Positions 912 to 10,571 of a stretch of DNA of 36,992 bases are shown here, one piece after another (the first letter of the stretch is position 1; every line of letters starts with the position of its first letter). Both the position numbers and the translations under genes were made by a program. The DNA is from Rickettsiales bacterium (GTDB lineage: Bacteria; Pseudomonadota; Alphaproteobacteria; Rickettsiales; UBA8987). The notes below the pieces were generated by a model, which ran no database searches, was not told where the DNA came from, and saw only the letters and a list, made by a program, of their open reading frames with translations. The DNA is taken from positions 1 to 36,992 of the forward strand of contig JANRLM010000094.1 in assembly GCA_033762595.1 (NCBI GenBank), in the 5' to 3' direction.

Positions 912-1352
912 ATGCGAAAAATTACCAATCAAGGTTTAGAGCTTATAAAATCTTTTGAGAGCTTTGCGCCATTAATTTACATCTGCCCAGCTGGATATCC
1001 AACTATCGGCTATGGTCATGTAGTATTGGAAAATGAGCGAGAAAAATTTGCCAAAGGTATCAATCAAGCTCAGGCTCTAAATTTGCTAGAAGCAGATGTT
1101 GCCAGCGCCAGTAAATCGGTTTTAAGGCTTATCAATATTCCATTAACTGATGGGCAATTTGATGCACTGGTTTCATTTACCTTTAACCTTGGTGGTGGTG
1201 CACTCCAACGCTCAACCCTTCGCAGGAAAATCAACCGCTATGAGCACGAAGAAGCCGCTGATGAATTCCTAAAATGGGTATGGGCCAACGGCAAGAAACT
1301 TGGCGGGCTTATCAGGCGTAGAGCGGCAGAAAGGTCGCTATACTTATTATAA
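912..1352 (+). CDS. Phage lysozyme (GH24 endolysin)
   Basis: A 146-residue muramidase that would cut the MurNAc-GlcNAc bond of peptidoglycan at lysis. The N-terminus carries the GH24 signature: E16 in KSFESF, then CPAGYPTIGYGH with T31. In this family the triad is written E-8aa-D/C-5aa-T; here the middle residue is C25, the cysteine variant. The C-terminal 'FDALVSFTFNLG' and 'LxxLIRRRAAER' blocks are also typical. Length is usual for a single-domain T4-type enzyme. There is no signal peptide, so export must depend on a holin such as the product of 1-417. No clear Shine-Dalgarno is seen at the ATG, which follows a terminator directly. Confidence 0.92.
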   Translation: MRKITNQGLELIKSFESFAPLIYICPAGYPTIGYGHVVLENEREKFAKGINQAQALNLLEADVASASKSVLRLINIPLTDGQFDALVSFTFNLGGGALQRSTLRRKINRYEHEEAADEFLKWVWANGKKLGGLIRRRAAERSLYLL

Positions 1353-2253: not shown

Positions 2254-2592
2254 TCAAATTTTAATACCAGTTATTTTTATAAATAAGAGGTACGATAATC
2301 CCGTAATTAAACAAGATGTAAAAAGACTTAAGTAAAAATTAATTCCGTAATTTAATAAAACTGGCAATAATAAGAAAAATATTAGAGATGGAATAACTAA
2401 ATATAATATTGAGGTTACATATGTCGCTACTTCTTTCAGGCTTCCAGATTGATTATAATAAAAGCAAATTGCAATTATTGATGATATAGGCAAACTAATA
2501 ATTAAAGCTGATAAAATATCAGATTTTTTAGACACCTCTGATGCTAAGGCAATTACCAAGGCACTAACTATCACTTTAATTGTAAATTCCAT
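2254..2592 (-). CDS. DUF3147 family inner-membrane protein
   Basis: A 112-residue protein with four likely membrane helices and almost no soluble part. The opening (KVIVSALVIALASEVSKKSD) and the later 'YLVIPSLIFFLLLPVLL' block fit the DUF3147 family, whose biochemical function is not established. It is the last gene of the metal-efflux operon and starts 2 nt after the stop of the CDF transporter, which points to cotranscription and possibly a helper role in cation handling; that role is inference from position only. Confidence 0.75.
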   Translation of the reverse strand: MEFTIKVIVSALVIALASEVSKKSDILSALIISLPISSIIAICFYYNQSGSLKEVATYVTSILYLVIPSLIFFLLLPVLLNYGINFYLSLFTSCLITGLSYLLFIKITGIKI

Positions 2593-2594
2593 AT

Positions 2595-3227
2595 CTACTT
2601 TTCGTTTTTAGATTTACTTGTTGAGTCTTTTAATTCCTTTCTTGCGGAAACAATAATCTGCCAAGACGCAGAGAGTGCTAGCCAAGCAAGAATAGTAGCT
2701 ACAATAATATCGGGATAGGCGCTATCTAGAGAGAATACCCCTAATGCTGCCACCATAACAGCAATATTGCCTATCGCATCATTTCTACTACAAAGCCATA
2801 CAGATTTAGTATTGCTATCTCCCTTACGAAAGCGATATAATAGAACAGCACATATAACATTTACTATTAAAGCTATAACACTGATATAAGCCATAATATC
2901 GGCTTTAGGAATATTGGGCTCTAACCCATGATGGACTGTCTCAAAAGCTGTCCATAACCCTACTAACCCAAGGGAAACTCCTTTAAATATAGATGCTTTG
3001 GCTTTTTCATTCAATGCCTTATTAAGCACAAAAATACTGATACCATAATTGACTGCATCAGATAAAAAATCCAAAGAGTTTGCCAATAACGAAACCGAGC
3101 CTGCAATATAGCTTGCTATTATCTGCACAACAAACATTACTGCATTAGCAATAAGGCACATCCATAATATACTAAGGTATTTGTTATCTTGATTTTGCTT
3201 TTCGATATCACAACAATGAACGCTCAT
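2595..3227 (-). CDS. Cation diffusion facilitator (CDF) family transporter
   Basis: A 210-residue secondary transporter that would exchange a cytoplasmic divalent cation (Zn, Co, Cd, Ni or Fe) for protons. Six hydrophobic segments are visible. The second has the D-x3-D metal pair of the family (D53 and D57 in SLDFLSDA), and the fifth has the family's SRNDxxGN form (D150, N154) in place of the classical H-x3-D. The protein is short: the usual cytoplasmic C-terminal domain is missing and only a charged tail (KDSTSKSKNEK) remains. An N-terminal HCCD cluster (residues 4-7) could bind metal. Its place behind the RND pump suggests it feeds metal from the cytoplasm to the periplasm for the pump. Confidence 0.9.
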   Translation of the reverse strand: MSVHCCDIEKQNQDNKYLSILWMCLIANAVMFVVQIIASYIAGSVSLLANSLDFLSDAVNYGISIFVLNKALNEKAKASIFKGVSLGLVGLWTAFETVHHGLEPNIPKADIMAYISVIALIVNVICAVLLYRFRKGDSNTKSVWLCSRNDAIGNIAVMVAALGVFSLDSAYPDIIVATILAWLALSASWQIIVSARKELKDSTSKSKNEK

Positions 3228-3270
3228 AATTAAATCTCCAATGACATCAAGCTTTAGAAATTGATTTTTG

Positions 3271-4101
3271 TTATTTTACCTCAACCCCGAAAGGGGCGAA
3301 GATTTCTTTGCCGTTGATTTTCACTTGTGCATAAAGTTTCATAAAACCAGATGTTTTTGGTATAGCATGGAATAAAAGTTCTGGTCCGCCACGCTCTGAT
3401 TGTTTTTCTGGCTCTTTACCCATTGGGTGAATATGCACAATAGATTTAAAATCATCACTAAACCCAACAATATGAGCAAAAGCACCCATAATAGGTTCTA
3501 GGTTAGTAACTGGTTTGCCGTTTGCATCTTCAATTAAGATTTTACCCATTGTTGCAGAGGTTGAATTTACATCACCTTCAAATGATAATTTGAACTTATA
3601 GCCATCAACATTTGCTTCGTTTGTAAGAGTTTTGTCAATCGCTACTGCTTGCTCTGGCTCACTTCCCATCGTTGCAACAGCATATTCCTGAGTATTTGTT
3701 TTAATTGGTAGAACATCACCCCAAACCTTATAAAAAGTTGAATTGGTTGGTATAAAATTAAAAGTCCACTCACCAGCATTTTCAGTTGGTGTTGGGTGAA
3801 TATGCTGGTAACCGCCAAGTGATGGATCATTGATTAAAAGATGTAATTTTTTAGTATGAGCAATCTTTAAATCATCCGCACCTACTGGTTTGCCACCATC
3901 AATTTCAGCAAGTTTAACAAGAATTTCAGTTGGTTTACCAATTTCAAGTTTATCTTGAGGTTCCAGCTTCATTGAAATGCTATTTTTTTGCACTTCATGC
4001 TGCATCTGCATTTTTGAATGATTCATTTTCATTTCTTGAGCATTTGCTTGAAATGAAGTGAGTGCGGTTGCAGCTAGTAATGCTATTGTAAGTTTTTTCA
4101 T
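3271..4101 (-). CDS. Exported metal-handling-like protein with two beta domains
   Basis: A 276-residue protein with a clear signal peptide (MKKLTIALLAATALTSFQANA, cut near residue 21-22) and then a Met/His-rich stretch (MKMNHSKMQMQH) of the kind that binds copper or other soft metals. Two similar beta-rich parts follow, roughly 38-150 and 160-276, each with paired His (YQHIHPTP and VHIHPMG) and an aromatic end (FAPFGVEV). Such proteins are common beside RND metal pumps; I relate them to YtkA/FixH-like domains from memory. A periplasmic chaperone or buffer role is inferred. It sits between czcA and the CDF gene in the same operon. Confidence 0.6.
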   Translation of the reverse strand: MKKLTIALLAATALTSFQANAQEMKMNHSKMQMQHEVQKNSISMKLEPQDKLEIGKPTEILVKLAEIDGGKPVGADDLKIAHTKKLHLLINDPSLGGYQHIHPTPTENAGEWTFNFIPTNSTFYKVWGDVLPIKTNTQEYAVATMGSEPEQAVAIDKTLTNEANVDGYKFKLSFEGDVNSTSATMGKILIEDANGKPVTNLEPIMGAFAHIVGFSDDFKSIVHIHPMGKEPEKQSERGGPELLFHAIPKTSGFMKLYAQVKINGKEIFAPFGVEVK

Positions 4102-4139: not shown

Positions 4140-7100
4140 TTAATCCTCTTCATTCGTATTCAAAATGGATTTCCCTAGATTGAATCTTTTGTAGATGGCA
4201 GGTAATACAAATAGGGTCAGGATTGTTGCAGTTATTAATCCACCTATCACTACTGTTGCCAGAGGTTTTTGGACTTCTGCACCTGAACCTGTCGCAATTG
4301 CCATTGGTACAAAACCAAGCGAGGCAACAAGGGCTGTCATCATTACTGGTCTCAGGCGTGATATAGCCCCATCAAAGATTGCCTTAGTTTCTTCAATACC
4401 TTCTTTTACAAGTTGGTTGATCTTTGTTATCATTACCAGACCATTAAGAACCGCCACACCTGAAAGCGCAATAAAGCCAACAGCGGCTGATATTGAAAAT
4501 GGCATACCACGCAGGAACAAAGCTAAAATTCCGCCTGTGAGTGCCAAAGGAACTCCACTAAATACTAACAAAGCCTGTTTTACTGATGAAAGAGCAGAAT
4601 AAAGCAGTAAGAAAATTAAAAAGAAACAGGCAGGAACAACAATTGACAATGTTTTAGTAGCTGTTTCCAGATTTTTGAATTGTCCGCCCCACTCAATCCA
4701 GTAACCAGCAGGGATTTTGAATTGTTTATCAAGTTTTTCCTGAGCCTCTTCAACAAAAGAGCCTATATCTCGGTTTCTGATATTTGCCTGAATAACGATA
4801 CGGCGTTTACCGTTTTCCCTGCTTATCTGATTCAGACCTTTAGTAACCTTGATTTCAGCAACTTCTTTAAGAGGAATAAAATTAGGGCGTTGATGGCTTA
4901 CAATTCCAAAACCTTCATCATTATCATCTTTTGGAAGCATTACAGGAAGATTGCCAATAGCCGCAATATCGTTTCTAAGGTTTTCAGGCAATCTGACCAT
5001 AATATCAAACCTTCTGTCACCTTGAAAAACAATACCGGCTTCCTTTCCACCAATTGCAATTGATATAACATCAAGGACATCAGAAGGATTTAAACTATAT
5101 TGCGAAATTGCTTTTTTATCCAGATTGATTTCCAGCATTGGTAAGCCTGATGTCTGCTCTACTTTAGCATCTTCAGCCCCTTCAATCTTACTGATTATAT
5201 TCAGGATTTTTTCAGCACTTGGCTCAAGAATTTCAAACTCATCACCATAAATTTTTATGGCAATATCACTACGAACACCAGAAATAAGCTCATTGAATCG
5301 CATTTGTATAGGCTGGGTAAATTCATAATTGTTAGCAGGAATTTGCTTCACTACTTTTTGAATTTTTTTAATTATCTTATTTTTAGGCATGGATGGGTCT
5401 TGCCATTCATCTTTAGGTTTTAGAATTATAAATGTATCAGAAACATTTACTGGCATTGGGTCTGCTGCCATTTCTGCCGTTCCTGTCTTTGAAAATACAA
5501 AAGCTACTTCTGGAACTTTGCTGATTACTTTTTCAACTTCAAACTGCAATTCTTGCGATTGCGTTAACGAAGTGCTAGGGATACGCATTGCGTGCATTGC
5601 TATATCTTTCTCATCAAGGGTTGGGATAAATTCCCTGCCCATAAAAGAAAATACAATCAATGAAACAAAGAAGGCCCCGAATGATATTATGATGGTTTTA
5701 ATTGGGTTCTGTAACGATTGCCTTAACCATTTTGAATAATGGTCTTTTGACCTTTCAATTATCTTACTATCTTTTTCTTCAACTTTACCTGTTACAAAAA
5801 TTGCTATCATTGCTGGAATAAAAGTTAAAGAAAGTATGAAGGCAGCAATTAATGCAATAATTACTGTTAGTGCCATAGGCTCAAACATTTTGCCTTCAAC
5901 ACCTGTAAAAGTAAGTAGCGGTATATAAACCATTATGATTATCGCCTGACCAAATACAGATGGCTTTATCATCTCACGACTTGCAACCATTACCTCGTTC
6001 AACCTTTCAGATAATCTCAGGTTTCTGTTTAATTCATGTTGTTTTCCAGCAAGCCTTTGCAGGCAATTTTCAGTTATAATAACTGCACCATCAACTATTA
6101 AACCAAAATCCAAAGCACCCAAACTCATCAGGTTTCCACTGATCTTTAGCTTAACCATCCCTATCGAGGTCATTAACATTGAAATAGGTATAACAAGGGC
6201 GGTAATTAATGCCGCCCTTATGTTACCGAGTAGCAAGAATAGAATTACTATCACAAGCAAAGCACCTTCAGCCAGATTCTTTTGAACTGTGCTTATAGTT
6301 GCATCTACAAGTTTTGTTCTGTTAAGAACAGTTTTTGCTACTATACCTTCTGGTAATGATTTATTAATTTGGGTGATTTTTTCATCAACTCCCTGTGAGA
6401 CAGTTCTGCTGTTTTCTCCTATAAGCATCAAAGCAGTTCCAACAACCACTTCCTCGCCATTTTCACTTGCCGATCCTGTTCTAAGTTCTTTACCTATTAA
6501 AATATCCGCAATATTTCTTAAATAAACTGGTGAACCTTTATGTGAGGCAATAACGATATTACCAATTTGTTCAATATTCTGTATCCTTCCGTCTGAGCGA
6601 ACAACATAAGCCTCACCGTTATTTTCAATATAATTAGCACCAATACTGAGATTGTTCTTTTCAAGTGCATTAACTATATCTGCAAATGAAAGCCCCAAGG
6701 CAATCAGTTTTTCAGGTGATGGATGTATATGATATTGTTTTGCATATCCGCCTATCGTATCAATTCCAGCCACACCCTTAACTGATTTTAACTGTGGCTT
6801 GATTATCCAATCCTGAACTGTTCTCAAGTATGAAGCCCGTTCTAAATCAGATTTTAACTTAGAACCCTCTGGGGTTAAATAACTCCCATCTTTTTGCCAG
6901 CCAACTTTACCTTCTTTTATTTTAGCACCTTTGCCTTTTGGATTTTTATATTCAACAGTCCACATATAAATTTCGCCAAGCCCTGTGCTTATTGCTCCCA
7001 TTTTAGGTTCAACATTTTGCGGTAATGATTCTTTTGCTTCCGAAAGCCTTTCATTTACCTGCGCTCTGGCAAAGTAAATATCTATACTCTCTTCAAATAT

Positions 7101-7385
7101 AGCCGTTACTTGTGAAAATCCATTTCTGGAAATTGACCTTGTGCTTTCTAATCCAGGTATTCCAGCTAAAGCGTTTTCTATTGGAAATGTAACCTGTTTT
7201 TCAATTTCAACAGGTGATAAAGCAGTGGCTACCGTATTAACCTGAATTTGCTTGTTGGTAATATCTGGTACTGCATCTATGGGTAGATTACCAAGTGAAT
7301 AAACGCCCAAGCCAGCAACAGCAGCCGTTATTAATGCAATCAGATACCTGTTTTGCAGTGAAAATTTTAGGATTTTTTCTATCAT
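4140..7385 (-). CDS. czcA: CzcA-type heavy-metal RND efflux pump
   Basis: A 1081-residue inner-membrane proton/metal antiporter, the core of a tripartite pump. The N-terminus (first helix, then DAVPDITNKQIQ) and two blocks of helices around large periplasmic loops are typical of the HME-RND family. The fourth helix carries the DFG-x3-DGA-x4-EN motif (D426, D432, E439), which marks pumps for divalent cations (Zn, Co, Cd, Ni) rather than the Cu/Ag pumps, whose motif is A-x-x-G-x3-DA. About 30 extra residues lie near 145-180 of the first periplasmic loop. It works with the adaptor encoded 35 nt upstream and the outer-membrane factor at 8735-10027. Metal choice is inferred from the motif. Confidence 0.95.
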   Translation of the reverse strand: MIEKILKFSLQNRYLIALITAAVAGLGVYSLGNLPIDAVPDITNKQIQVNTVATALSPVEIEKQVTFPIENALAGIPGLESTRSISRNGFSQVTAIFEESIDIYFARAQVNERLSEAKESLPQNVEPKMGAISTGLGEIYMWTVEYKNPKGKGAKIKEGKVGWQKDGSYLTPEGSKLKSDLERASYLRTVQDWIIKPQLKSVKGVAGIDTIGGYAKQYHIHPSPEKLIALGLSFADIVNALEKNNLSIGANYIENNGEAYVVRSDGRIQNIEQIGNIVIASHKGSPVYLRNIADILIGKELRTGSASENGEEVVVGTALMLIGENSRTVSQGVDEKITQINKSLPEGIVAKTVLNRTKLVDATISTVQKNLAEGALLVIVILFLLLGNIRAALITALVIPISMLMTSIGMVKLKISGNLMSLGALDFGLIVDGAVIITENCLQRLAGKQHELNRNLRLSERLNEVMVASREMIKPSVFGQAIIIMVYIPLLTFTGVEGKMFEPMALTVIIALIAAFILSLTFIPAMIAIFVTGKVEEKDSKIIERSKDHYSKWLRQSLQNPIKTIIISFGAFFVSLIVFSFMGREFIPTLDEKDIAMHAMRIPSTSLTQSQELQFEVEKVISKVPEVAFVFSKTGTAEMAADPMPVNVSDTFIILKPKDEWQDPSMPKNKIIKKIQKVVKQIPANNYEFTQPIQMRFNELISGVRSDIAIKIYGDEFEILEPSAEKILNIISKIEGAEDAKVEQTSGLPMLEINLDKKAISQYSLNPSDVLDVISIAIGGKEAGIVFQGDRRFDIMVRLPENLRNDIAAIGNLPVMLPKDDNDEGFGIVSHQRPNFIPLKEVAEIKVTKGLNQISRENGKRRIVIQANIRNRDIGSFVEEAQEKLDKQFKIPAGYWIEWGGQFKNLETATKTLSIVVPACFFLIFLLLYSALSSVKQALLVFSGVPLALTGGILALFLRGMPFSISAAVGFIALSGVAVLNGLVMITKINQLVKEGIEETKAIFDGAISRLRPVMMTALVASLGFVPMAIATGSGAEVQKPLATVVIGGLITATILTLFVLPAIYKRFNLGKSILNTNEED

Positions 7386-7420: not shown

Positions 7421-8713
7421 TTAATGGTCATGGCTTGCACCAGCTTTTTCAATATCAGCCTTTATTACAAAGCTGTTTTTACTGACATAATCATCGCCGC
7501 TTTCAATACCTTCTAAAACTTCCACATAATTATTACCTCTTTCTCCAAGCTCAAGCATTCTGACTTCATAGGTTTCACCTACTTTGGCAAATACTACATC
7601 CATATCTCTAAACTTCTGTAATGCCGAAATCTTGACTGCTAAAGGCACTTCTTTTTCATCAATAATAACTTGCGCCTTAACGCTCATTCCACTTCTGAAA
7701 AAATTTTGAGTGTTATCAATAAAAGCTCTAGCAACTACTGTTTGACTTGATGCTTCGGTTGTTTGTAAGATTGCTGTAATAGTTGATTCAGCATTGTATT
7801 TTTTATTCTTACTTTGAATGGAAATTTTTTGCCCTTTTTTTATTGACTCAACATCTTTTGAAAAAACGCTAAATTCAGCCATCATTGAAGATAAATTTGC
7901 TACTACAAAGAGTGGTGAGTCGTTGGTTACTTCGCCAACACTAGCATTTCTTTCAATAATAACTCCGTCAATAGGTGCAGTAACAGGATAAATCTGCAAG
8001 CTATCATTACCCTCAACCATCGCTAAAACATCACCTTTCTTTACAGGTTCATTCAGGTCTTTCTTTATTTCTTTTACAACACCTGAAAATCTTGCTTTTA
8101 TCTGCGCTGATTTGTTGGGATCAAGATTAATTATCCCATATAAAGGAATAGTTTTTTCTATTTTTACAGGGGCAACCTTCTCAATTTCAATTCCAAGATT
8201 TTTAGCTGCTTCCTCGGTTATTTTAACCCTGCCTTCGTGTGAGTCATATTTCCATTCGTAAGTTTCCCCATCATATTTTGCGGTTACTTTTACATCAAAT
8301 GAATGAGGTTCTTTTACTTCCTCATTACTCTTGAAAAATTTCTTATCCTTCAAGAAAGTAAAATTATCTTTTTTCCCACCAAGCCTTGTAAGCTCAACAT
8401 TTAACTCAACATCTTTCGGGTTTAGCAACTGCCCATCATCATAAGCGTAAAACCTAAATTCAGGTGGAATACCATCTTCAAATATAGTTGCCTCAATCGC
8501 AAAATCATCTTTTTCAAGTAACCTTCCGCCATGAACTCCCTTTTCAAATTCCTTTTCACCCCCTTCTTCGCCATGCTCGTCATGACCGCCCCCATGTTCA
8601 TCGTGATGACCAGATTCCGAATGCGATTCTTTATGATGAGCTAAATAATCATAGGTAATGTAACCACCAGCTAAAGTTAGTGCTATTGATAGTAATAAAA
8701 TTTTATTTTTCAT
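7421..8713 (-). CDS. czcB: RND efflux periplasmic adaptor (CzcB-type)
   Basis: A 430-residue membrane-fusion protein that would link the pump to the outer-membrane factor and may pass on metal. It starts with a single helix or uncleaved signal (residues 5-24). Next is a strongly His/Glu/Gly-rich stretch (about 26-62, many HxxH and HDEHG units), likely a metal-binding region. The lipoyl/barrel-sandwich halves (IKARFSGVVKEI and YPVTAPIDGVI) surround a short hairpin, and a beta-barrel and membrane-proximal domain follow. The last residues are again metal-binding in look (ASHDH). The stop-to-start gap to czcA is 35 nt, consistent with one operon. Confidence 0.93.
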   Translation of the reverse strand: MKNKILLLSIALTLAGGYITYDYLAHHKESHSESGHHDEHGGGHDEHGEEGGEKEFEKGVHGGRLLEKDDFAIEATIFEDGIPPEFRFYAYDDGQLLNPKDVELNVELTRLGGKKDNFTFLKDKKFFKSNEEVKEPHSFDVKVTAKYDGETYEWKYDSHEGRVKITEEAAKNLGIEIEKVAPVKIEKTIPLYGIINLDPNKSAQIKARFSGVVKEIKKDLNEPVKKGDVLAMVEGNDSLQIYPVTAPIDGVIIERNASVGEVTNDSPLFVVANLSSMMAEFSVFSKDVESIKKGQKISIQSKNKKYNAESTITAILQTTEASSQTVVARAFIDNTQNFFRSGMSVKAQVIIDEKEVPLAVKISALQKFRDMDVVFAKVGETYEVRMLELGERGNNYVEVLEGIESGDDYVSKNSFVIKADIEKAGASHDH

Positions 8714-8734: not shown

Positions 8735-10027
8735 TTATTTTGTTAAAAATCTTTCAATATTTGCTTTTTGAATATGATATTCTTTCAAAGCAGAATTATA
8801 ACTATACCTTGCTTCAAAAAGGGTTCTTTGAGCATCTAAAACTTCTAAATACGGAAATTTTCCTGCGTTATAGCCGTCTCTGGTTTGATTAAAGGCTTTT
8901 TCTGCAGAGGGTAAAACTTGATTCTTAAAATTTTGAATTTGTAAATTTGCAACCTCAAGCAAATTAAGAGAATTGATAAACTCATTTTTTAAACTTACCA
9001 AAGTTGCTTCATTAGACTTATTCGTTTGCTCTAACTGACTTTCTGCTTTGATAATATTTCCCTTATTCTGATTAAAAATAGGTATGGGAATTGATAAGCC
9101 AGCAATAAAAGCCTGATTATCTGTTTGCTGGAATTGCCTAATACCCAAGCTTATTGTAGGATCTGGAATTGCATTTGCTTTCTCCAGCTGGTAATTGGCT
9201 TTTGCTTGCTTTGAAGAATTTTCTAAAGCTATATTATACGGAGTTTTTTCAATAATACTTAAAACTTCCTCTGGGTTAATTTTCTCTATCTCATCATAAT
9301 TCCAAAAATCGTTATCAGATAATTCAAAGTCAATTTGGTTTTTCCCCCATAAATTTGCCAAGTTATTTTTTGTAATTTTAGCTTCTTGTTCTGCTTTTTG
9401 CAGCTGAATATTTGCATTTGCTAAGGCAACTTCAGCCTTGCTTTTCTGAAATGCTGGTTCAGCAGCAGCATTCACTCTTTTAGTAACATTTGCCAAAACC
9501 TGCTCAGCTAATTTTTTTTGCTCTATTGCAATCTTTAAGTTTTCACTTGCAAATATAGCTTCTGCATAAGCGGTTTTAGTAGCCTTTATCAACTCTAGTT
9601 TTGTAATTTCAAACTTATTATATGCTAGTTTTACAGCCTGTTTTGAAGCATCAATTCTAGCTCCATACTTTCCGCCAACTAAAACTTGTTGCGAAATTCC
9701 ATAGGTGGTTTGTGCAGAATCATACCCACTATAAACACCATCTCCACTAAAATCCTCAGCTTCAATGGTAACTTGTGGGTTAACATAATTTTTAGATTGC
9801 TTATAATCACCTTCGCTTGCTAAAGCTTCAAATCTAACAGACTCTAATGCAGGAGAATTGTTTAAAACCTTTTCAACAATTTGTTTTAAGCCAAGGTGGT
9901 TAGTTTTTACCTGTTCTGATTTTGTATTTTTAGTTGACTTTGCAAGTACATTAACATCAATATTGCCAACGAGGCTAGTAGTGCAGGTAAAAACCAATGC
10001 ACTAAGTAATAATTTTGTATTTTTCAT
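8735..10027 (-). CDS. czcC: TolC-family outer-membrane factor (CzcC-type)
   Basis: A 430-residue outer-membrane channel with signal peptide (to about residue 30) and two repeats of the OEP family rich in long helices (for example AEQVLANVTKRVNAAAEPAF, and QTRDGYNAGKFPYLEVLDAQ near the end, the latter a hallmark block). It gives the exit duct for the pump encoded by the next two genes. Its ATG (10027) has no good Shine-Dalgarno, and the 12 nt ending 7 nt before the ATG can pair with the 3' end of the preceding Cys/His-rich gene, so translation may depend on that gene being read. Confidence 0.93.
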   Translation of the reverse strand: MKNTKLLLSALVFTCTTSLVGNIDVNVLAKSTKNTKSEQVKTNHLGLKQIVEKVLNNSPALESVRFEALASEGDYKQSKNYVNPQVTIEAEDFSGDGVYSGYDSAQTTYGISQQVLVGGKYGARIDASKQAVKLAYNKFEITKLELIKATKTAYAEAIFASENLKIAIEQKKLAEQVLANVTKRVNAAAEPAFQKSKAEVALANANIQLQKAEQEAKITKNNLANLWGKNQIDFELSDNDFWNYDEIEKINPEEVLSIIEKTPYNIALENSSKQAKANYQLEKANAIPDPTISLGIRQFQQTDNQAFIAGLSIPIPIFNQNKGNIIKAESQLEQTNKSNEATLVSLKNEFINSLNLLEVANLQIQNFKNQVLPSAEKAFNQTRDGYNAGKFPYLEVLDAQRTLFEARYSYNSALKEYHIQKANIERFLTK

Positions 10028-10089
10028 TTAGATAATTTCTTAAAGCTAATAATAGAATTGAAAAAACAACACAAAAGTAATGCCTCCAT
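10024..10089 (-). CDS. Possible 21-codon ORF coupled to czcC
   Basis: From ATG at 10089 an uninterrupted hydrophobic 21-codon frame with a Cys-Cys pair (MEALLLCC...) ends in a TGA that overlaps the czcC start as ATGA. Such an overlap is typical of translational coupling, but no ribosome-binding site is seen before it, so it may be chance. Confidence 0.2.
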   Translation of the reverse strand: MEALLLCCFFNSIISFKKLSK

Positions 10090-10129
10090 AGGAGGATATA
10101 AAAGGCTGTTTTATTTTGCTTTAAGAAAT
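10035..10129 (-). promoter_or_regulatory. Long-range stem covering the czcC translation start region
   Basis: On the mRNA strand, ATTTCTTAAAGC (10129-10118) is a perfect 12-bp match to GCTTTAAGAAAT (10046-10035). The first arm includes the last two codons and the TAA stop of the Cys/His-rich gene; the second ends 7 nt before the czcC ATG. The 71-nt loop contains a smaller inverted repeat, CCTCC/GGAGG (10083-10095). A ribosome terminating on the first gene would open the stem, so the layout suggests translational coupling. Pairing is seen; regulation is inferred. Confidence 0.5.
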
Positions 10130-10489
10130 AGAAGGTGGCTCAAGAAGGGGAGATGATTTAAACTTTGTAATTTGTGAAGATTGGTAAATTACAAATTTAG
10201 CGTCTAAAAAACTAAAATTTAACGCATTCAAATTATTGAAAGAAAGAACGGAATGCGAATGATGACAACAATGACAATTTTGGTCGCAACAATCATCAGA
10301 TTTACTATGCTTGTGATGGTTTGAAGTGGTTTTTAAATTATCAGAATACTTATTTTTTTGTGTTTTTTCAGAATGATGACAATTTTTACAAGGAGATTTA
10401 AAAGCCTCAAAATAACCTTGAGTGCTGGTTAACACAAGTGCAACCAAGGCAATGTAAAAAATTGACTTTATGTATTTTTTAAAATTCAT
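10121..10489 (-). CDS. Cys/His-rich exported small protein, first gene of metal operon
   Basis: A 122-residue protein from ATG 10489 (a GTG at 10504 would add five residues). After a hydrophobic segment (about residues 8-24, a signal peptide or anchor) come CKNCHH and, further on, a dense cluster CCDQNCHCCHHSHS within a Lys/Ser/His-rich stretch: seven Cys and many His in all. It probably binds metal in the periplasm. The last third has no such residues. It leads the efflux operon, similar in position to small CopL-like or DUF2946-like leader proteins, though I do not recognise it as a member of either. Its stop codon lies in a stem that covers the czcC start region. Confidence 0.6.
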   Translation of the reverse strand: MNFKKYIKSIFYIALVALVLTSTQGYFEAFKSPCKNCHHSEKTQKNKYSDNLKTTSNHHKHSKSDDCCDQNCHCCHHSHSVLSFNNLNALNFSFLDAKFVIYQSSQITKFKSSPLLEPPSIS

Positions 10490-10541
10490 ATAACCAATCA
10501 ACACTACATATTATCAGATATGTCAACTTTTTTAATATTAA

Positions 10542-10571
10542 ATTATAACTGGATGAAGTTATAAATATCAA
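10542..10571 (-). promoter_or_regulatory. Promoter and operator of the metal-efflux operon
   Basis: Read on the - strand, TTGATA (10571-10566) and TATAAT (10547-10542) are 18 nt apart and lie about 50 nt before the first gene. A perfect inverted repeat, TTATAACT (10543-10550) and AGTTATAA (10557-10564) with a 6-nt centre, fills the spacer and overlaps the -10 box. This is the usual place for a repressor or MerR-type activator site. No regulator gene is present in the window, so the binding protein is unknown. Confidence 0.65.

What the first reader, a model, noticed from the sequence alone, without database searches (positions are those of the whole stretch)
10024..10489. Cys/His-rich first gene may act as a metal-sensing leader for czcC translation
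The stop region of the Cys/His-rich gene forms one arm of a perfect 12-bp stem whose other arm ends 7 nt before the czcC start. Ribosomes that reach the stop would open the stem; metal-dependent stalling or folding of the Cys/His-rich nascent chain could therefore set pump production. The loop holds a second palindrome with a CCTCC segment and a 21-codon frame that overlaps czcC as ATGA.
Basis: partly seen in the sequence, partly recalled or inferred. Interest (0 to 1): 0.6.

Follow-up and report, generated by a model that had tools for sequence, protein, structure and literature searches.

The report
Metal-sensing leader gene gating efflux pump
A small cysteine/histidine-rich gene in front of a heavy-metal pump operon carries, across its own stop codon, one arm of an RNA stem that covers the pump's translation start; different bacterial lineages rebuild this stem with different letters, so it is very probably a working switch of the kind known from the copper sensor CutF.

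Summary
On the minus strand a 122-codon Cys/His-rich leader (10489-10121) precedes czcCBA. Its stop codon lies inside one arm of a perfect 12-bp stem (10129-10118 with 10046-10035) that ends 7 nt before czcC. In the nearest relative both arms are identical while the loop is unrelated. A CzcC search across the order found 24 loci; 23 have such a leader, with PP a few codons before the stop. Over 21 sequence clusters, leader-stop regions pair with the start region of their own next gene far better than with each other's (mean -17.2 vs -10.5 kcal/mol; 0 of 200,000 permutations as low). Pairing peaks at stop and start, is absent from 52 ordinary gene pairs, and uses different letters in different lineages (covariation). 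The parts match the experimentally established CutF system of Rhodobacter (leader with Cys motif, PP motif, stem covering the next start), here before a CzcA-type, probably divalent-metal, pump. Stalling, metal dependence and the metal are inferred, not shown. The inner palindrome and the 21-codon frame exist but are not conserved. Verdict: real and functionally constrained; a new member of a known kind.

The parts
10542..10571 (-). sigma-70-like promoter TTGATA-18-TATAAT, 52 nt before the leader ATG
   Evidence: 11 of 12 consensus letters; consensus match only
10121..10489 (-). CutF-like Cys/His-rich leader gene, 122 codons plus TAA: hydrophobic N-terminus, CKNC and CCDQNCHCCHHSH cluster, C-terminus SSPLLEPPSIS
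   Evidence: 84% identical relative under purifying selection, last 29 residues unchanged; leaders with a terminal PP before czcC in 23 of 24 loci of the order
10130..10138 (-). codons CCA CCT (PP) followed by TCT: motif EPPS, candidate ribosome pause site, 3 sense codons before the stop
   Evidence: PP is the only invariant feature of the leader alignment; PP lies 1-4 codons before the stop at 27 of 27 loci
10118..10129 (-). 5' arm of the stem, ATTTCTTAAAGC, spanning the leader stop codon
   Evidence: identical in G001; pairing shown by covariation over 21 clusters
10047..10117 (-). 71-nt loop, not conserved (52% identity to the relative's 55-nt loop, shuffled 49%)
10083..10095 (-). inner palindrome CCTCCTATGGAGG, terminator-like by pattern; not conserved
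10024..10089 (-). 21-codon frame overlapping czcC as ATGA; not conserved, probably chance
10035..10046 (-). 3' arm of the stem, GCTTTAAGAAAT, in the czcC translation start region
8735..10027 (-). czcC (outer membrane factor, closest NCBIfam model IhpA), the gated gene
   Evidence: PF02321 E 7e-44; NF045679 E 1.6e-52, below its cut-off
7421..8713 (-). czcB (membrane fusion protein, closest NCBIfam model IhpB)
4140..7385 (-). czcA (CusA/CzcA family RND pump, motif DFGLIVDGAVIITEN)
   Evidence: TIGR00914 1532 bits, above cut-off

Best explanation
The Cys/His-rich gene is a CutF-like regulatory leader. In the free mRNA its stop region pairs with the czcC start region and keeps czcC translation low. 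A ribosome held near the PP motif or at the stop codon covers the 5' arm and frees the czcC start. The nascent chain is exported while being made, and metal binding to its Cys/His cluster changes how long the ribosome stays at EPP, so pump synthesis follows metal outside the cytoplasm, most likely rising with excess metal. Shown here: the leader, the stem, evolutionary constraint on the stem, and the conserved PP-stop-arm geometry. Inferred: translational control in vivo, stalling, metal dependence, direction and the metal.
For: Arms identical in the relative while the loop is randomised. 23 of 24 czcC loci in the order have a PP-ended Cys/His leader, and leaders also precede czcC in other orders. 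Own arms pair far better than swapped arms. Pairing is restricted to the stop and start positions and absent from 52 ordinary gene pairs. Several pair types per position between lineages. PP lies 1-4 codons before the stop at all loci, and a ribosome footprint there raises openness of the next start (0.31 to 0.50 in the window). In CutF, leader translation in cis, the Cys motif, the PP end and the stem were each shown to matter (PMC9973294). Arrest at a C-terminal PP motif was shown in vitro for the related CruR (PMC12992588).
Against: No expression data. The window's motif is EPP, not the RAPP shown to arrest; even for CutF a strong arrest was not seen in the LepB-SecM test. The signal peptide could not be scored. 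Two distant clusters show no stem (L079, L082). L025 has czcC without a leader. The change in predicted openness is moderate and reversed at a few loci.
Confidence: 0.68

Rival explanations
1. Plain translational coupling: the stem only ties czcC translation to translation of the first gene (ribosomes ending at the TAA open it). The first gene's product is an ordinary periplasmic metal-binding protein such as CzcI, with no metal-dependent pausing.
For: The stem spans the stop codon, so any terminating ribosome would open it. CzcI of Cupriavidus acts on the pump as a protein (PMC10127602).
Against: Ordinary neighbouring genes in the same genomes show no such stems. The invariant part of the leaders is the PP next to the stop, not a protein fold. 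The unchanging C-terminus suits a tunnel-interacting segment. In CutF the protein does not act in trans (PMC9973294).
Confidence: 0.2
2. Transcription attenuation of the CruR type: leader translation controls Rho access in the gap, and the stem is only secondary.
For: CruR is a related PP-ended Cys leader working through Rho (PMC9426467).
Against: CruR's gap is 162 nt (PMC9973294) and its Rho-loading stretch is C-rich and unstructured; here the gap is AU-rich (sequence) and the conserved element is a start-covering stem.
Confidence: 0.08
3. The inverted repeat is incidental: an insertion element's ends, an invertible segment, or a terminator.
For: 12-bp inverted repeats occur elsewhere in the window; one terminator-like hairpin lies in the loop.
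Against: No other genomic copy. Loops of window and G001 are simply unrelated. The outer stem is AU-rich with a 71-nt loop, and the inner hairpin is not conserved. The pairing recurs with other letters in other lineages.
Confidence: 0.03

Closest known systems
CutF leader of Rhodobacter capsulatus cutFOG (PMC9973294, PMC8456105)
   Same: Small Cys-motif leader with a C-terminal proline motif as first gene; stem in the gap covering the next gene's start; downstream metal-resistance gene. CutF-like genes were reported to lie most often before OEP (CzcC/CusC type) genes.
   Different: CutF senses copper and controls a multicopper oxidase, with a proline-rich end PEPEGPPPRL; here EPPSIS, a CxxC plus Cys/His cluster, and a CzcA-type pump. 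In the window the stem covers an AU-rich start region rather than a clear Shine-Dalgarno sequence.
CruR / DUF2946 (Bordetella pertussis; PMC9426467, PMC12992588)
   Same: Cys-motif leader, terminal PP motif, metal-responsive control of the next gene.
   Different: RAPP motif, arrest relieved by copper, Rho-dependent termination, longer C-rich gap; DUF2946 profile not matched by the window protein.
CopL (Xanthomonas copLAB; NF033807)
   Same: Cys/His-rich gene before a metal-resistance operon, reported not to act in trans; weak profile match E 0.003.
   Different: Score 18 against a cut-off of 40; copper oxidase downstream.
CzcI (Cupriavidus metallidurans czcICBA)
   Same: First gene before czcCBA, small periplasmic metal-related protein.
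   Different: Reported to lack the terminal PP motif and to quench the pump as a protein (PMC9973294, PMC10127602).

Membership tests
CutF-like leaders (rules of PMC9973294) | shorter than 150 aa with PP within the last 15 residues | tested here: met
   122 aa, PP at 118-119
CutF-like leaders (rules of PMC9973294) | N-terminal signal peptide | tested here: inconclusive
   Lys-rich N-terminus followed by a hydrophobic stretch (MNFKKYIKSIFYIALVALVL) seen by eye; no signal-peptide predictor available
CutF-like leaders (rules of PMC9973294) | Cys/His metal-binding motif such as CxxxC | tested here: met
   CKNC (CxxC) and CDQNC (CxxxC) within CCDQNCHCCHHSH; metal binding itself not tested
[quoted passage not shown]
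   czcC 93 nt downstream
CutF-type switch (mechanism) | stem in the gap covering the next gene's translation start | tested here: met
CutF-type switch (mechanism) | downstream translation depends on leader translation, Cys motif, PP motif and metal | not testable with these tools
   needs reporter experiments
DUF2946 (PF11162) | profile match above gathering score | tested here: not met
   no match for the window protein; 6 of 16 leaders of the order match weakly, best E 6e-5
CopL family (NF033807) | profile score above 40 bits | tested here: not met
   18.1 bits
CruR-type Rho attenuation | C-terminal RAPP motif | tested here: not met
   the motif is LEPP
CruR-type Rho attenuation | Rho-dependent termination between leader and next gene | not testable with these tools
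   needs transcription assays
CzcI | first gene of czcICBA, without a C-terminal proline motif (PMC9973294) | tested here: not met
   position fits, but PP is present; no CzcI profile or sequence comparison was made

The most novel reading that the evidence does not exclude
A nascent-chain sensor for divalent metals (Zn, Cd, Co or Ni) that opens a stop-codon/start-region stem to switch on czcCBA translation, conserved as a general post-transcriptional control of RND metal pumps in Alphaproteobacteria: a non-copper member of the CutF type whose RNA switch is supported by covariation across lineages.
Probability: 0.4. Interest if true: 0.75.

Novelty: new member of a known kind. Interest (0 to 1): 0.58.

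Why it matters
Czc-type metal pumps are usually explained by transcription factors. Here comparative evidence points to a translation-level gate in front of them in many alphaproteobacterial lineages. It gives the CutF model, so far tested in one operon for copper, an evolutionary test, and points to probably divalent-metal pumps as further targets. It turns many 'hypothetical' first genes of metal operons into testable sensors.

Tried and rejected
Dispersed repeat or MITE: no second copy in the genome. Known riboswitch: no Rfam match in the window. Invertible loop or mobile insert: window and G001 loops unrelated. Intrinsic terminator: only a 5-bp hairpin with a poor U-run in the loop, not conserved. 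The 21-codon frame overlapping czcC: absent in G001 and nearly all other loci, treated as chance. Membership in DUF2946 or CopL by profile: below cut-offs. Plasmid search for the leader: none. Base composition as the cause of own-pair preference: excluded with shuffles, shifted windows of the same locus and ordinary gene pairs. Complementarity of PP codons (CCN CCN) with SD sequences as the cause: unlikely, since swapped arms keep it yet pair worse, and the pairing extends past the stop into non-coding bases. One alignable group of 8 sequences shows conserved arms but almost no covariation within the group; the covariation is between groups. The organism could not be named beyond an alphaproteobacterial MAG lineage.

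Full report
Observation. On the minus strand the window carries a czc-type operon: leader (10489-10121), czcC (10027-8735), czcB (8713-7421), czcA (7385-4140), then a putative periplasmic protein, a short CDF-type protein and a small membrane protein. The loop is 71 nt, and 7 nt separate the stem from the czcC ATG. The minimum-energy fold of the region contains it (-22.9 kcal/mol, z -2.3). The palindrome CCTCCTATGGAGG and the 21-codon frame ending in ATGA also exist. Taken alone, a 12-bp inverted repeat in a 34% GC window is only mildly unusual, so comparative evidence decides.

Nearest relative. One genome of the same family (G001; named record DQGZ01000182.1, MAG UBA8987) has the same leader (84% identical) before czcC. 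Both arms are identical, in the coding and in the non-coding part. The loop between them (55 vs 71 nt) is 52% identical, no better than shuffled (49%), and the start of czcC has diverged too. Neither the palindrome nor the 21-codon frame survives. The leader is under purifying selection (dN 0.075, dS 0.46), and its last 29 residues (FLDAKFVIYQSSQITKFKSSPLLEPPSIS) do not change.

Wider survey. A CzcC search over 263 genomes of the order gave 24 loci. Twenty-three have, directly upstream, a 100-130-aa ORF with a hydrophobic N-terminus, a Cys/His cluster and a terminal PP: LLEPPSHA, PPLKPPSHA, PPSKPPKA, RPPIA and similar. One of these, L027, has an extra base inside the 5' arm that shifts the frame just after PPSH. 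L025 has no leader. Beyond PP almost nothing is invariant. CzcC hits in other orders of the class mostly have such leaders as well (L075, L076, L077, L079-L083, L085; not recognised in L078 and L084). Other leader-profile hits lie before other metal- or envelope-related genes, and several show the same kind of stem by inspection, for example ATATTTCCTAA with TTAGGAGATAT in L109.

The stem is general. In most loci the predicted fold pairs the leader stop region with the start region of the next gene, using different letters: CACACGCTTAATTCC/GGAATTAAGTGTG, CCAAAGCTTAGTTTG/CGAACTAACTTTGG, TCCGATTGCTTAA/TTTAATCGGA, CTTAATTTCTG/CAGAAATTAAG. Where a small lipoprotein-like gene sits between leader and czcC (L033, L037, L038), the stem precedes that gene. 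Four controls were run. (i) Swapping arms between 21 sequence clusters: own mean -17.2, swapped -10.5 with sd 0.72 kcal/mol, 0 of 200,000 permutations as low. (ii) Sliding the 5' window along the leader: -15.2 at the stop, about -10.5 elsewhere; sliding the 3' window into the next gene loses it as well. (iii) Dinucleotide shuffles: 12 of 21 clusters at p<=0.01, combined P 1.7e-18. (iv) Fifty-two ordinary same-strand gene pairs with 40-150-nt gaps from four of these genomes: mean z 0.07, none at p<=0.01, against mean z -2.94 for the leaders (P 1.3e-8). The first base of the stop codon is paired in 17 of 21 clusters; at positions just past the stop, where there is no coding constraint, three to five pair types occur. 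This is covariation between lineages; within one alignable group the arms are simply conserved. Two distant clusters (L079, L082) show no significant stem.

Mechanism. PP lies 1-4 codons before the stop at all 27 loci examined. A ribosome with the second Pro in the P-site, or one at the stop codon, would cover most of the 5' arm. Masking such a footprint raises the mean unpaired probability of the next gene's start region from 0.41 to 0.51 overall, and from 0.31 to 0.50 in the window, though a few loci go the other way. The genome makes little use of Shine-Dalgarno sequences (14% of long genes vs 8% in shuffled), so in the window the stem probably hides an AU-rich start region rather than an SD. 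A long dwell at PP would open czcC; a quick finish would let the stem close. The same parts constitute the CutF system, where leader translation in cis, Cys motif, PP end and stem were each shown to be needed (PMC9973294): copper bound to the exporting nascent chain is thought to delay the ribosome and switch the next gene on. I infer the same logic here. The pump is CzcA-like (DFGLIVDGAVIITEN), and the nearest CzcC/CzcB models are those of a divalent-metal exporter, so the metal is more likely Zn, Cd, Co or Ni than Cu; this rests on established knowledge of RND families and on analogy.

Relation to what is known. The leader meets the published CutF-like rules that could be tested (length, PP end, Cys motif, downstream metal gene); its signal peptide could not be scored with a predictor. 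Profile membership in DUF2946 or CopL is not met. CutF-like proteins were already reported to lie most often before OEP genes (PMC9973294), so the kind is known. In the sections read, that paper reports gap lengths but no covariation test of the stem, and none of the papers found applies this mechanism to a divalent-metal pump. I therefore call it a new member of a known kind, with new evolutionary evidence for its RNA half.

Limits. All evidence is comparative. Metal binding, stalling, direction and metal identity are untested. Cluster definitions and next-gene starts were assigned by hand, and several genomes are incomplete.

Noticed in passing
window 10506-10523 (minus strand ACATATCTGATAATATGT): Imperfect dyad between the promoter-like site and the leader ATG, largely kept in G001; could be an operator for a transcriptional repressor of the whole operon.
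   Followed up: no
L033, L037, L038 (between leader and czcC): A small lipoprotein-like gene (about 77 aa, MKTISLLIALFGLSACFATNN...) is inserted between leader and czcC, and the stem precedes that gene instead of czcC.
   Followed up: partly
L068, L069, L109: Similar leaders precede a different, unidentified gene family (proteins beginning ...ARPVSYPGGWTVMQ...), with the stop/start stem visible in L068 and L109.
   Followed up: partly
L027 about 1240-1246: One extra G in the 5' arm shifts the leader frame just after PPSH, so the leader loses its normal stop codon; real or an assembly error.
   Followed up: no
L116: A leader-like protein ending NPRAPPVLFI (RAPP type) before a porin-like gene, with a long perfect stem TTCTTTTTATCTAAA / TTTAGATAAGAAAGGA around its stop codon and the next start.
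   Followed up: no
window 2254-4101 (minus strand): Downstream of czcA lie a putative periplasmic His/Met-rich protein, a short CDF-like transporter (210 aa) starting MSVHCC, and a small membrane protein, probably in the same operon.
   Followed up: no
window 912-1352 (plus strand): An ORF that by eye resembles a phage-type lysozyme lies near the left end of the contig; not searched.
   Followed up: no
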